Part shown: piece by piece, positions 1 through 7,423 of the stretch
Layout: every line of letters begins with the position of its first letter
Position numbering within the stretch: the first letter of the stretch is position 1
Assembly (NCBI GenBank): GCA_024653325.1
Contig: JANLFX010000031.1
Span: forward strand, 1-33,393
Length of the DNA: 33,393 bases
Direction: 5' to 3'
Source of the DNA: Anaerolineae bacterium
GTDB lineage: Bacteria; Chloroflexota; Anaerolineae; JACIWR01
Notes under the pieces: generated by a model
Databases searched by the model: none
Seen by the model: the letters and a program-made list of their open reading frames with translations, nothing else
What the model was told of the DNA's origin: nothing
Position numbers and translations under genes: made by a program

Positions 1-69
1 TTCGGCGGGGGCGGGTCCCGCGGCAGGAGGATGAGGTGGAAACTCCATAGGGGGGCTTGCGCGGCTTTC

Positions 70-191
70 GTCCAACAAGGCGTTGGAGCGGACGCGCAAG
101 GACAGAACGGACTTCACGAGAGAGAGTGGTAGGTAGTGAAGGGGGTTTCGCGCGCCTACCGGGGGCGCGCCGCTCAACTTAGTCGTTAGCC
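70..191 (+). other. attC-like integron recombination site
   Basis: R''-like GTCCAAC (70-76) and R'-like GTTAGCC (185-191) flank imperfectly complementary arms: GTTGGAGCGGACGCGC (82-97) pairs with GCGCGCCGCTCAAC (165-178) except for two unpaired bases on the left arm. About 122 bp, within the usual attC size range. Confidence 0.72.
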
Positions 192-230
192 TGCGCTTTG
201 GGTTCAAGCATACGCGTAAGGAGTGAACAG

Positions 231-458
231 ATGAACACCCAAGTTATAGACAAAGTGGTGGAGCAATTGAAGTCTTTGCCGTATGACTTACAGCGTCAAG
301 TGTTGGAATTCACTCGCGTTCTGGCACTTTCTGTACCACGTGGTGTGGCTGGGAAGCAATTGTTGCTGTTCGCGGGTACGATTCCATTTAGTGATGTGGA
401 CTTGATGCGAGAAGCCATAGAGCAAGGGTGTGAACAGGTAGACGCCCATGAGTGGTAG
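231..458 (+). CDS. VapB-like (DUF2281-type) antitoxin
   Basis: Short ORF with RBS aaggag just upstream of ATG 231 (better than the listed start 198); overlaps the following PIN-domain gene; sequence KVVEQLKSLPYDLQRQVLEFTRVL. Confidence 0.75.
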   Translation: MNTQVIDKVVEQLKSLPYDLQRQVLEFTRVLALSVPRGVAGKQLLLFAGTIPFSDVDLMREAIEQGCEQVDAHEW

Positions 459-846
459 GTATCTCCTGGACACCAGCATCCTTATTGCCTTGTTCGCCGG
501 TGAGACAACCGTCAAAGAGAAATTGACTCAAGCCAGCGAAGTTTTTGTCCCCAGTATTGCTGTTGGAGAACTCTACTACGGGGTATGGAAATCACAGCGG
601 AGCCAAGAGAACCTTGCTCGGATTGACGAACTGGTAGCAGAGAGCGTGGTTTTGAACTGCAACGCTGAGACAGCTCGTTGGTATGGAGAAATCAAGAATA
701 CTTTGCGAGTCAAAGGGCGTCCAATACCCGAGAACGATTTGTGGATTGCGGCGATTGCGTTGGAACACAATTTAGTGTTGGCAACGCGAGACGTGCATTT
801 CGAAGAGATTGACAACTTGAAGGTGGAAATGTGGTTAAGCCAGTAA
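448..846 (+). CDS. VapC-like PIN-domain toxin ribonuclease
   Basis: MSGRYLLDTSILIALFAGE...VPSIAVGELYYG...IPENDLWIAAIALEHNLVLATRDVHFEEI: conserved PIN acidic residues; overlaps the antitoxin. Confidence 0.92.
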   Translation: MSGRYLLDTSILIALFAGETTVKEKLTQASEVFVPSIAVGELYYGVWKSQRSQENLARIDELVAESVVLNCNAETARWYGEIKNTLRVKGRPIPENDLWIAAIALEHNLVLATRDVHFEEIDNLKVEMWLSQ

Positions 847-851
847 ACGCA

Positions 852-873
852 GGCTAACATGCGCATAAGCCGA
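852..873 (+). other. 5' arm of a second attC-like site, interrupted
   Basis: GGCTAACATGCGCATAAGCCGAC directly after the vapC stop; GGCTAAC is the reverse complement of GTTAGCC at 185-191, as expected for a cassette's own R''/R' pair in circular form. Confidence 0.62.
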
Positions 874-1140
874 CAGACCCTCCCCCGGTTTTGTGGACAG
901 GGGGTTAAGCTACACCTGGTAGTAGAGCTGCTCATACTCCACCGGGCTGAGGTAGTCCAGCGACGAGTGAAGCCGGCGCCGATTGTAGAATGCCTCGATG
1001 TAGTAGAAGAGGTCAGGTCTCGCCTCATTGCGAGTGCGATATGCGTGGTGGTACACCACTCGCTCTTCAGGGTGCCGATGAAGCTTTCCATCGGGGCATT
1101 GTCATACCAGCTTTCCACACCGTTCACATCGACCTGAATA
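874..1140 (-). pseudogene. IS3-family transposase (orfB) C-terminal remnant with adjoining IS end
   Basis: Minus strand reads [16 protein letters not shown] then, after a frameshift, [51 protein letters not shown] (stop at 910-912): typical IS3 orfB C terminus. N-terminal part absent. Outer boundary approximate. Confidence 0.8.
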
Positions 1141-1218: not shown

Positions 1219-1725
1219 GTGGATGCCGGGGCGGAGGACGTGGAGGTGAAACGGCGGGAGAAGGCGGAGGGATTACGGCGGGGGCGGATTTTGCGGCTGA
1301 CGGAGGAAGCGCTGGAGCAGGGTGGGGTACTGACCCAGGAGGACCTGGCCCGAGTGCTCAAGGTGGATGCGCGGACCATTCGCCGGGACATGAGTATCTT
1401 GCAGGCAGAAGGTCACCTGGTGCACACCCGGGGTGCGGTGAAGGGGGTGGGGCGGGGGCAAACGCACAAAGTGCGGGTTATCGAGCTGTGGCTGGATCGG
1501 GAGGGATATGACAAGATAGTCCGCTGGTTGCATCACTCAGCCCAGGCCATCAAACGTTACGTGAGCACCTTTTTGCGGGTGGTGGTGCTGCACCGGCAGG
1601 GGAGGTCAGTGGAGGAGATCGCCTTTCTGACCCAGTCGTCGGTGCGTTTGGTGAAGGACTATCTGGGGGGTATGAGGCGGCGCTGGGGGTCTCACACCGG
1701 CGGGAGAGGCTGGAAGAGGAAATAG
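1219..1725 (+). pseudogene. DUF1670-like protein, probably truncated and/or frameshifted
   Basis: RILRLTEEALEQGGVLTQEDLARVLKVDARTIRRDMSILQAEG...IKRYVSTFLRVVVLHRQGRSVEEIAFLTQSSVRLVKDYLG resembles the downstream DUF1670 ORF; lacks its N terminus; homology appears to continue in another frame (RLEEEIARVTARSELPTEGEKGG*) to about 1777. Confidence 0.5.
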
Positions 1726-1785
1726 CGCGGGTCACTGCCCGGTCGGAACTTCCCACCGAGGGGGAAAAAGGGGGGTAGTGAGGAG

Positions 1786-2580
1786 ATGAGCCGGGTGAAT
1801 CCCTACGCCAGCATCGAGAAGCGGACCTTCGAGAGCGCCTTGATGCACCTTTTGGAGACGGAATACGGGTTGCTAGGCGGGCGGCGCATCCTGCAACTGA
1901 TGGTGGAAGACGTGATGGGCCTGGTAGAGGAGTTCTACCCGGCCAGCGAGCGGGTGAGCAGCGGGACGTTGGTTTGGAGTTGTACGGCGGACGAGGGGAA
2001 GAAGGCCGAGCCGGGGAAGCGGACGGAGGAGTACAAGACGGTGACGGTGCAATTGCCCTTTGTGAACAAAGCCGATTTGCGGGCGCGGACCGAGAAGAAG
2101 ACGCCGCGAGGCAAGAGGCGGGAGGTAGCGGAGGAGCGGGACAGGCAGCGGCTGGCGCGGATGGTGAAGGCGGCGGCGGAACAGGGTGGGCTGCTGACCA
2201 TTGCCGAGCTGAGTGTGATTCTGAACAAGTCCTACGAGGTGACGCGGCAGTACGTGCGGGAGTGGGAAGAGGAGACGGGGGAGCTGCTGCCGCTGAAGGG
2301 TTACCGGATGGACCAAGGCAGCCGACCGACACACAAGCGGGAGATGGTGCGGCTGTGGGAGCAGGGGATAGAGCCGCCGGACATTGCCCGCGAGACTGGG
2401 CGCAGCCTGAAGGCGGTGGAGCGATACTTACAGGACTACCAGCGGGTGCTGATGCTTCTGAAGCAGGGGCTGAGCGCAGAGGAGATCAGGGTACTGACTG
2501 GACGTGGCAGGCAAGTTGTGTTAGAATATATCCAGCTTGCCCGCCAGTACCACCCGGAGTTGTTCGCTGAGGCAGATTAG
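1786..2580 (+). CDS. DUF1670 domain-containing protein
   Basis: Full-length ORF MSRVNPYASIEKRTFESALMHLLETEYGLLGGRRILQLMVEDV... with helix-turn-helix-like segments; RBS gaggag upstream. Confidence 0.75.
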   Translation: MSRVNPYASIEKRTFESALMHLLETEYGLLGGRRILQLMVEDVMGLVEEFYPASERVSSGTLVWSCTADEGKKAEPGKRTEEYKTVTVQLPFVNKADLRARTEKKTPRGKRREVAEERDRQRLARMVKAAAEQGGLLTIAELSVILNKSYEVTRQYVREWEEETGELLPLKGYRMDQGSRPTHKREMVRLWEQGIEPPDIARETGRSLKAVERYLQDYQRVLMLLKQGLSAEEIRVLTGRGRQVVLEYIQLARQYHPELFAEAD

Positions 2581-3665: not shown

Positions 3666-5068
3666 TGCTATCCTTTCCACCTTACAATCTCTGGCCGTTC
3701 ATCTGGGTGGCTTTCATTCCCATGCTCCTGGCCCAGTTCCGGGTCATGCCGCGCCGGGTCTCCAGCCTGGCCTCGGCCATCGCCATCGGCGGCTGGCTGG
3801 GCGGCTACCTGACACCCATCTTCGCCGGCAGCGGTGTCTATATGACCTGGCTCCCGCTGCTCATTGCCGGCATCAGTTATCTGGCCGATAGTGGTGTGCG
3901 CGCCTTTCACGAGCGCACCGGATACCGCTGGTTCGTCGGATACGGTACGCTCACCTGGGTGGGCTTTGAGATGATTCGTGGCTTTATCCCCATCATGGGC
4001 ACCTGGGGATTTGTTGCCAGCACCCTCTACAGCCAACCTTGGCTCATACAGCCGGTGAGTATCTTCAGCATCTTTGGCCTCGGTTTGCTCATTATGTCCG
4101 TCAACTACGGGCTGGGACTAGGCGCATTGTATATCTTTGACCGGCGCTGGAAACTGGACCAGGACGTTCCGCCCCTTGCCGGGCGCTCGGTGCGCAACTG
4201 GATGCTGGGCGTGCTGGCCGTGCTGGTCGCCTGGACCGGCCTCAGCTTGGCTCTCTACCACACACCGGCGACACCCACAGTCCGCGTGGCCGCGCTACAC
4301 TATGACGCGGGCGCGCCTCCCTGGAACTCAGTGGATAAATTCAGCGAGCTCACCCGCCAGGCAGCTCAAGGTGGCGCCCGCATCGTCGTCTGGCCGGAGA
4401 TAGCCATTGAGGGCGATCCGCAGGGGGCAAGCGCTCCCGAATTTCGCCGGTTAGCCGCCGAGACCGACGCCTACCTGACCCTGGGCTACTTTGTCCGGGT
4501 GACCGAGCGGGTTTGGCGGAACGAGACCACAGTGCTGTCGCCAGACGGCCAATTTCTGGGCGTCTATGGCAAAGACCATCCTGTGACCTTCGCCGGGGAG
4601 AGCAGTCCGACGCGCGGGACCTATCCGGTGTATGATACGCCTCTGGGCCGAATCGGTACCATCATCTGTTACGACCTGGATTTCACCGATACGGCCCGCA
4701 AGATTACCCGCAACGGCGCACAACTGATTCTGGTTCCTTCCCACGACTGGCCCCAGATAGCCACAAAGCACTACACCCATCTGCTCTTCCGTGCGGTGGA
4801 AAACCGGGTGAGCATGGTCAAAGCCGACAACAGCGGCAACGATTCGGTCATCATTGACCCCTACGGGCGGATCATTGCGGCCGCGCTCACGCCCGGCGGC
4901 GATCGTACCGGTCAGGTTGTGATGGCCGATGTGCCCCTGGGCACGGGGGATTCGCTTGCCGTTCGCCTGGGCGACTGGACCGGATGGATTGCTCTGGCGG
5001 GGATGGCATTTTTCATCATTTACGATCCTGTGACGAAGGTAAGAGCAAAGCGAAATGCCTCGCTCTGA
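3644..5068 (+). CDS. Apolipoprotein N-acyltransferase-like membrane protein with carbon-nitrogen hydrolase domain
   Basis: N-terminal TM helices; nitrilase triad candidates in VVWPEIAIEG (E), GKDHPVTFAGE (K), IICYDLDFTD (C). Confidence 0.82.
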   Translation: MLSAILLMLSFPPYNLWPFIWVAFIPMLLAQFRVMPRRVSSLASAIAIGGWLGGYLTPIFAGSGVYMTWLPLLIAGISYLADSGVRAFHERTGYRWFVGYGTLTWVGFEMIRGFIPIMGTWGFVASTLYSQPWLIQPVSIFSIFGLGLLIMSVNYGLGLGALYIFDRRWKLDQDVPPLAGRSVRNWMLGVLAVLVAWTGLSLALYHTPATPTVRVAALHYDAGAPPWNSVDKFSELTRQAAQGGARIVVWPEIAIEGDPQGASAPEFRRLAAETDAYLTLGYFVRVTERVWRNETTVLSPDGQFLGVYGKDHPVTFAGESSPTRGTYPVYDTPLGRIGTIICYDLDFTDTARKITRNGAQLILVPSHDWPQIATKHYTHLLFRAVENRVSMVKADNSGNDSVIIDPYGRIIAAALTPGGDRTGQVVMADVPLGTGDSLAVRLGDWTGWIALAGMAFFIIYDPVTKVRAKRNASL

Positions 5069-5191: not shown

Positions 5192-7423
5192 TCAGGGGCC
5201 AGCCTTATTAGAGGCCGTGATTTTGACCACCCATATCTCCCCTGGCTCCAATGGCTTGTCAATCACCAGGCGAACATCATCAAACCGGCAAGGTACTGCC
5301 TGGCCGGTGGTGAGGTCTGTAGCCGTGTAGTTTCCTGGTGGTATGGCAATGCCAAATCTGGGTTGTACCGGCTGATCTGTGTGGTTGAAGGCGAAGAAGA
5401 TGTAGAAGCGGTCATACCCATCCTTCCCCTCCAAGAGACGCGGTTCGATGTCCAGGTCTTGTGACACCCCATCCACCTTCACCGGTGGCTCAATCCTCGC
5501 CAGTCGTGTTAACCCTTTAAGCAACTTTCCGGCATTCTCATCCCCGAACTTATAGAAGCCCAGGCTCAGCATGGTGCCCACGAAGATAGCCCAACCCTGA
5601 CCATAGTGATTAACCACAATGGCCGGTCCACCATCCTCGAACTCTCCCACCACTTCGGCCGTATCGGCCAGGATTTCCATCTCCTCCCGGAAACGAGCCC
5701 CGGCCAGCGTATCCCCCTTGTTCAACAGGGGCAGTGCCGGATGGTTTCTGGTGAGACGAATATAACAGGGTGTGTTCTCTTCCAATCCTGTCGCTCCCCG
5801 CTCGCGACAACCGAAGACGTGTTCCAGCCCCAATCCCGGCACCGCTTCACTACAGTAGCCGGTTTCATCATTCCAGGCAGTACGGGCTTCGGCAATGACG
5901 ATCCCACCCCGCCGGACGAATTCCTCAATTCGGGCTGCCGCAGCGCGGGACAGCATAAAGGAAAAAGGCAAATACAGCAAGTCGTAGTCTTTGAGCTGTC
6001 CGGCAGCGATCTGGTCCACATGGACAAAATCCGCCGGGATATGCTCCTGATAAAGGGCTCGGTAGGCCCCGACATAGCTGCGACTGGGGATATAATGCCA
6101 GGGCTGACGCATGCATACCCACATGATATTGGCCAACACGTTCCAGCAGATAGCTGCCCGCGCCCGACTGGGTCTGGCGGCGTAGAAGAGATCCATGTTC
6201 TGAGTGATGATTTTCGCCGCTGCGCCAGCGGCCAGAGCCCGCTCGCTGGGCGTGCCATCCAGATTGGCCAAGCCGAAACCGGCTGATTCGTAACCACTGC
6301 TCATGGGATGCCAGGCGTAGAAGCACAGCCCCTTGGCCCCGTGGGCGATGGGCTGCCAGGCATAGGCGCGGGCATCCGCAGCAGTCATGTGCGAGGCAAA
6401 CATGCCCACGTAACCGTGTCCCCCCTGCAACTCCCCCAGCCAATATGGTGCCCCGACGGAATCACAGGCGGAGCGGGTGCCGGCCAGCATCGCTGCTCGA
6501 AAGGAGGGATCGCTGGTTTCCCTGGCTCCCACATGTTTGGGATAAAGCGAGGTGCCCCAGATGTCCACCTGACGGGCCATACGCCAGTCATCGGGTGAGC
6601 CTTGCTCGTCAATGGGCAGGGTGAGGATGGAAGGGATAGCCGCGTGGCTGGTGGTAATGTGATCATCAGCTCGGCGCACTGTATCGTGCCGCCAGCGCAA
6701 GTCCTCGGCTAGCTTGTCCATGATGAACTGTAACCAATCTATGTATTCGGTGTAGGTCATCAGGGAGATGAATTTGGGGGGCAGTACCAGATCCCAAGAG
6801 GAAAACTGGCGATACCAGGCAGCGTTGAGCGCGTCCAGGTCTGGGTACCGGCGTTGCAGCCAATCACGGAAACGCTGGACAGTGTGATGGCAGTAGCAGA
6901 ACATGGCCGGCTGGGGCAGGAAATCGAAGTATCCCCATTGAACGATATGCGGTTCGCTCCACAGGTCCCAGGCCAGGAAAGGCTTGTAGCCGGTGATGTG
7001 TTCGGCCAGGGTTTGCATGAAGCGTTCGGCAGCGGCGCGTACGCCAGGATGATCGTAACAGTAACCCGGCGCCCCTTGAGAATCAATGGGCACGCCTCCC
7101 GCCGAGACGTAGCGACAGTCGGGATAATATTTCACCAACCAGTCCGGCGCCGAATCGAGGTAAAGCTGGACTATAACCCTCAGCCCTACCTCCTCGGCCA
7201 GCTCCATCAGCAGGTCTACCGCCTCGAAGTGATATTCACCGGGGCGCGGTTCACCGCTGGCCCAATCCACCCAACAACGGACGGTGTTGAAACCACAGTC
7301 GGCGATGTTGCGCAGGTCCTTTCGCCAGGTCCGCCGAGCATCTGGGCCCGGTGGTCGGACCATGGTCGCTCTGGTTTTCCCACCTGTATACCAGGTAGCG
7401 ATAGGAATAAACTTTTCGTCCAT
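5192..7423 (-). CDS. GH42-like beta-galactosidase
   Basis: GFNTVRCWVDWASGEPRPGEYHFEAVDLLMELAEEVGLRVIVQLYLDSAPDWL, AWDLWSEPH, trimerisation-type middle domain. Confidence 0.87.
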   Translation of the reverse strand: MDEKFIPIATWYTGGKTRATMVRPPGPDARRTWRKDLRNIADCGFNTVRCWVDWASGEPRPGEYHFEAVDLLMELAEEVGLRVIVQLYLDSAPDWLVKYYPDCRYVSAGGVPIDSQGAPGYCYDHPGVRAAAERFMQTLAEHITGYKPFLAWDLWSEPHIVQWGYFDFLPQPAMFCYCHHTVQRFRDWLQRRYPDLDALNAAWYRQFSSWDLVLPPKFISLMTYTEYIDWLQFIMDKLAEDLRWRHDTVRRADDHITTSHAAIPSILTLPIDEQGSPDDWRMARQVDIWGTSLYPKHVGARETSDPSFRAAMLAGTRSACDSVGAPYWLGELQGGHGYVGMFASHMTAADARAYAWQPIAHGAKGLCFYAWHPMSSGYESAGFGLANLDGTPSERALAAGAAAKIITQNMDLFYAARPSRARAAICWNVLANIMWVCMRQPWHYIPSRSYVGAYRALYQEHIPADFVHVDQIAAGQLKDYDLLYLPFSFMLSRAAAARIEEFVRRGGIVIAEARTAWNDETGYCSEAVPGLGLEHVFGCRERGATGLEENTPCYIRLTRNHPALPLLNKGDTLAGARFREEMEILADTAEVVGEFEDGGPAIVVNHYGQGWAIFVGTMLSLGFYKFGDENAGKLLKGLTRLARIEPPVKVDGVSQDLDIEPRLLEGKDGYDRFYIFFAFNHTDQPVQPRFGIAIPPGNYTATDLTTGQAVPCRFDDVRLVIDKPLEPGEIWVVKITASNKAGP

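What the first reader, a model, noticed from the sequence alone, without database searches (positions are those of the whole stretch)
70..873. VapBC toxin-antitoxin pair carried as an integron gene cassette
The TA pair is preceded by a 122-bp attC-like structure (RYYYAAC-type box 70-76, GTTAGCC 185-191, arms complementary except for unpaired bases on one strand). Directly after vapC lies GGCTAACATGCGCATAAGCCGAC, shaped like the 5' arm of another attC. CGCAGGCTAAC (848-858) is the exact reverse complement of GTTAGCCTGCG (185-195), so the cassette's own R'' matches its own leading TTAGCC, as expected for a circularisable cassette, while the upstream site's R'' (GTCCAAC) does not match, as expected for a different upstream cassette. 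If the host is not a proteobacterium this would be an informative integron array.
Basis: partly seen in the sequence, partly recalled or inferred. Interest (0 to 1): 0.85.

Follow-up and report, generated by a model that had tools for sequence, protein, structure and literature searches.

The report
Broken vapBC integron cassette in Chloroflexota
A Chloroflexota bacterium carries a toxin-antitoxin gene pair that once moved as an integron gene cassette; the recombination site in front of it is intact, but the one behind it was cut in half at an insertion sequence, so it is a real but stranded example of a known kind of mobile gene.

Summary
Window 70-191 is a genuine attC site. A covariance model built from 17 attC sites of related genomes, with this site held out, finds it at 41.5 bits (E = 1.5e-8). 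The next hit in the window scores 13.9 and the opposite strand 13.4. VapB (231-458) and VapC (448-846, PIN domain) follow. The cassette starts at G|TTAGCC (185/186) and its own R'' box is GGCTAAC (852-858).

The cassette's own attC is only a 5' half (852-874), cut at the end of an IS3-family remnant (875-1144). As it stands it cannot be excised.

The refutation tests went the other way. The same genome holds a truncated integron integrase and further attC sites; one follows a second toxin-antitoxin-like cassette and shares the 15-base start GGCTAACATGCGCAT with the window's half site. In a relative (L074), an 82% identical VapC sits beside a decayed integrase gene, starts at the same GTTAGCC with a conserved leader, and ends in a complete attC. 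Other relatives carry this vapBC with or without attC.

Toxin-antitoxin cassettes and Chloroflexota integrons were both known, so this is a new, decayed member of a known kind.

The parts
1..69 (+). Tail of the preceding cassette (cut by the contig edge; no gene assigned)
   Evidence: Inference from the complete attC that follows; contig starts at position 1
70..191 (+). Complete attC site: R'' 70-76 GTCCAAC, L'' arm 82-97, variable part, L' arm about 165-178, R' 185-191 GTTAGCC
   Evidence: Held-out covariance model 41.5 bits, E=1.5e-8; arm pairing against shuffles
186..874 (+). Remnant of the vapBC gene cassette, from the crossover point G185|T186 to the truncation of its attC
   Evidence: Leader homologous to L074 only from GTTAGCC on; R'' matches leading TTAGCC
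231..458 (+). vapB, antitoxin, 75 aa
   Evidence: Co-conserved with vapC at 52-76% identity in most of the closest loci; no Pfam match above cut-off
448..846 (+). vapC, PIN-domain ribonuclease toxin, 132 aa
   Evidence: PF01850 2.7e-20; VapC structures 4e-15
852..874 (+). 5' half (R'' GGCTAAC plus L'' ATGCGCATAAGCCGAC) of the cassette's own attC
   Evidence: Shares GGCTAACATGCGCAT with the own-genome attC at C67:689; complete attC at the same place in L074, L157, L166
875..1144 (-). IS3-family insertion sequence remnant (one end plus the C-terminal part of the transposase)
   Evidence: NF033516 2.5e-5; element end at 875 shared by copies with unrelated flanks

Best explanation
This is the stranded end of a chromosomal integron cassette array in a Chloroflexota genome. 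An integron integrase of the IntI family once recombined a circular vapBC cassette with R' of the upstream attC (between G185 and T186), placing vapBC behind an older cassette. VapB and VapC form a type II toxin-antitoxin pair: VapC is a PIN ribonuclease and VapB neutralises it, so loss of the cassette would be punished, which would stabilise the array. Later an IS3-family element inserted into, or a deletion carrying its end joined to, the cassette's own attC at 874/875. That removed L' and R' and froze the cassette. Shown here: the attC, the half attC, the IS junction, the integrase remnant, other attC sites in the genome, and intact versions of the cassette in relatives. Inferred: past recombination by IntI, toxin activity, the stabilising role, and that contigs C136, C128 and C67 belong to one integron.
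For: Held-out attC model hit, strand-specific, against a best of 18.1 bits in 621 kb of other loci. Integrase remnant over the curated cut-off in the same genome, 86% identical to an intact IntI of a class relative. Further attC sites on C67 and C62. In L074 the order decayed intI / GTTAGCC / vapBC / complete attC. Homology starts at the cassette edge: leader 74% identical, flank 40%, best of 500 shuffles 63%. Complete attC right after vapC in L157 and L166.
Against: The integrase gene lacks its N-terminal third and lies on another contig; nothing links the contigs. The downstream attC is half. The bottom strand of 70-191 does not fold canonically as its minimum. Several relatives carry the same vapBC without attC. 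No promoter-like site was found.
Confidence: 0.92

Rival explanations
1. An ordinary chromosomal vapBC that lies by chance next to an inverted repeat resembling attC; no integron was involved.
For: Homologous vapBC without attC are common in the class. Folding energy of 70-191 is unremarkable.
Against: Held-out covariance hit, other attC sites and an integrase remnant in the genome, cassette edges conserved in L074 and L075, and complete attC sites in relatives.
Confidence: 0.03
2. A lone attC and a single cassette inserted at a secondary site outside any integron, rather than part of an array.
For: Only one complete attC lies on the contig, and the contig starts 69 bases upstream of it.
Against: The upstream site is a full attC whose R'' differs from its R', as expected for a preceding cassette in an array. 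The C67 attC shares its first 15 bases with the half attC.
Confidence: 0.15
3. The cassette is still mobile, using an intact attC elsewhere or the upstream site.
For: The upstream attC keeps all boxes and could be recognised by an IntI supplied in trans.
Against: Excision needs two sites around the gene; the downstream one lacks L' and R'. The only integrase in the genome is truncated.
Confidence: 0.04

Closest known systems
Toxin-antitoxin gene cassettes of sedentary chromosomal integrons (for example phd-doc and ccd of Vibrio; review PMC8618304)
   Same: Two-gene toxin-antitoxin unit between integron recombination sites; leading TTAGCC matches its own R''.
   Different: VapBC type, Chloroflexota host, own attC truncated, integrase remnant only.
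Vapbc cassette of Anaerolinea sp. SulCav_AS07 (locus L074)
   Same: VapC 82% identical, same cassette start and leader, attC directly after vapC.
   Different: L074 has a complete attC and lies first in the array next to a decayed intI; its next attC is broken by a group II intron.
CALIN elements (attC clusters lacking an integrase; IntegronFinder 2.0, PMC9024848)
   Same: attC present on the contig without an integrase; such elements are regarded as degraded integrons or contig fragments.
   Different: Only one complete attC on this contig; integrase and other attC sites are on other contigs of a draft genome.

Membership tests
attC recombination site | R''/R' boxes and paired L''/L' arms with extra bases on the L'' side | tested here: met
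   arms; held-out covariance model, strand-specific
attC recombination site | recombination of the bottom strand by an IntI | not testable with these tools
   Needs an excision/integration assay
integron | integron integrase gene (intI) | tested here: inconclusive
   Remnant over the TIGR02249 cut-off on contig C128, N-terminal third missing; link to this contig unknown
integron | more than one attC in the genome | tested here: met
   C67 two sites, C62 one, plus this one
integron | attI site next to intI | not tested
   None identified beside the truncated intI; in L074 GTTAGCC lies beside the decayed intI
integron gene cassette (mobile unit) | gene plus a complete attC at its 3' end | tested here: not met
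   Only R'' and L'' remain, 852-874; IS remnant follows. It is a remnant of a cassette
VapBC toxin-antitoxin system | PIN-domain toxin with acidic catalytic residues | tested here: met
   PF01850 2.7e-20; D8, E41, D97, D115 present in the sequence
VapBC toxin-antitoxin system | small overlapping antitoxin gene upstream | tested here: met
   vapB 231-458 overlaps vapC 448-846 by 11 bases; co-conserved in relatives
VapBC toxin-antitoxin system | toxicity of VapC and neutralisation by VapB | not testable with these tools
   Needs expression experiments

The most novel reading that the evidence does not exclude
Integrons are a routine, class-wide gene-shuffling system in this Chloroflexota class (attC hits in 56 of 100 genomes sampled), and one vapBC lineage has been captured, moved and stranded in them repeatedly, passing between cassette and non-cassette life.
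Probability: 0.5. Interest if true: 0.5.

Novelty: new member of a known kind. Interest (0 to 1): 0.38.

Why it matters
It documents a toxin-antitoxin cassette in an integron outside Proteobacteria, with a series of relatives showing intact, decayed and attC-less versions of the same gene pair. That series makes it possible to ask how toxin-antitoxin genes enter and leave cassettes and whether they stabilise arrays in Chloroflexota too. As a single locus it is ordinary: integrons in Chloroflexota and toxin-antitoxin cassettes have both been reported (PMC8618304, PMC9668308).

Tried and rejected
Rfam has no match in the window. My first arm scanner used the strict R' consensus GTTRRRY and missed the site; the relaxed one found it. 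BLAST of the attC against the own genome found no second copy, which only shows that attC sites differ in sequence; the covariance model found them. I considered that the IS3 element might target attC sites: its other copies in the class sit in unrelated sequence, so this was rejected. The genome-wide pattern search for the missing L' arm was mis-specified (it found only the half attC itself on the other strand) and gives no information; the window search for it gave 5 matches against 3.6 expected. A tree of vapBC shows the attC-bearing members clustered (3 label changes; 3 of 500 shuffles as low) but not one clade, so one or several captures remain open. No sigma-70-like promoter was found in 1-1200.

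Full report
What was checked. The window is the complete contig C136 of a 211-contig draft genome (93.7% complete), so position 1 is a contig edge. Its arms pair over 14 bases with two single extra bases, both in L'' (GTTG[G]AGCGG[A]CGCGC against GTTG-AGCGG-CGCGC). It is the best site in the window; 0 of 2000 dinucleotide shuffles of the first 1000 bases and no reversed-sequence control in 264 kb reached its score.

Covariance model. Rfam holds no matching family, so I built a model from 17 attC sites found in genomes of the same class, most of them near integron integrases or in arrays, leaving the window's site out. The training alignment supports the structure: 91.5% of cells paired, 54 cells with two-sided changes, no shuffle as high, and slid versions far lower. 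The model finds window 70-191 on the + strand at 41.5 bits, E = 1.5e-8; the next window hit has 13.9 bits and the same place on the other strand 13.4. In 621 kb of loci fetched for other reasons its best hit was 18.1 bits.

Same genome. TIGR02249 (integron integrase) finds one match above the curated cut-off, at the start of contig C128, covering positions 105-313 of 315. It is 86% identical to the intact IntI of a class relative over that part. Its N-terminal third is missing, so it is a pseudogene or a misjoined end. The covariance model finds further attC sites: C67:689-761 (69 bits), C67:3568-3649 (59.9 bits), C62:193-256 (36 bits), and a weak one at C181:4532-4603 (25.9 bits, E = 0.016). 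The first C67 site begins GGCTAACATGCGCAT, the same 15 bases as the half site after vapC. It follows a DUF4258 gene and an MqsA-like gene, which looks like a second toxin-antitoxin cassette (the MqsA match is below Pfam's cut-off).

The cassette in relatives. In L074 (Anaerolinea sp. SulCav_AS07; VapC 82%) the order is: a frameshifted, stop-containing intI on the minus strand, GTTAGCC at 4737, vapBC, a complete attC at 5405-5476 (49.9 bits), a second cassette gene, and a further R'' followed by a group II intron. The 46-base leader from GTTAGCC to the vapB start is 74% identical to the window's, where the best of 500 shuffles gives 63% and the 46 bases further upstream give 40%. So homology starts at the cassette edge. 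L157 and L166 have complete attC sites directly after vapC. L075 keeps GTTAGCC in front and GGCTAAC behind but shows no complete attC. L076, L156 and L159-L165 carry homologous vapBC with no attC hit. A tree clusters the attC-bearing members without making them one clade.

What is broken. After vapC only R'' and L'' of the cassette's attC remain (852-874). From 875 the sequence matches an IS3-family element end that occurs in several class genomes with unrelated flanks. The element itself is a remnant; homology ends near 1144. No matching L' arm is found in the window above chance. The cassette is therefore not excisable as it stands.

Function. VapC has a PIN domain, the four acidic residues D8, E41, D97 and D115, and closest solved relatives that are VapC ribonucleases. 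NCBIfam tRNA(fMet)-type VapC models match below their cut-offs, so the RNA target is not assigned. VapB has no clear family but is co-conserved. The likely role is array stabilisation by addiction, by analogy with toxin-antitoxin cassettes of other chromosomal integrons; this is inference.

Novelty. Integrons have been reported in Chloroflexota (PMC8618304; PMC9668308) and toxin-antitoxin systems are among the commonest cassette functions. I found no paper in the held library describing a vapBC cassette in Chloroflexota, but most subscription journals are not held. A side result, attC hits in 56 of 100 related genomes, suggests integrons are common in this class; the E-values are rough.

Noticed in passing
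100 related genomes of the same class: 56 of 100 genomes hold at least one attC hit at E <= 1e-5, many in clusters, and 18 of 60 hold an integron integrase over the cut-off. Integrons look common in this class.
   Followed up: partly
L186 (own contig C67) 113-666: A DUF4258 gene overlapping an MqsA-like gene, followed by a 69-bit attC: a second likely toxin-antitoxin cassette in the same genome.
   Followed up: partly
L074 6347-6514: A group II intron (RF02003) starts just after an R'' box of the second cassette, so the next attC there is interrupted as well.
   Followed up: partly
L179 1769-3120 (G009 contig C142): Another vapBC lies between two complete attC sites but in the opposite orientation, with a TATAAT-like stretch in front.
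   Followed up: partly
window 1219-2580: Two neighbouring DUF1670 genes with helix-turn-helix regions follow the IS remnant; their role is unknown.
   Followed up: no
L186 1-45: The start of contig C67 looks like part of an attC in the opposite orientation to the others on that contig (20.7 bits, cut by the contig end).
   Followed up: no
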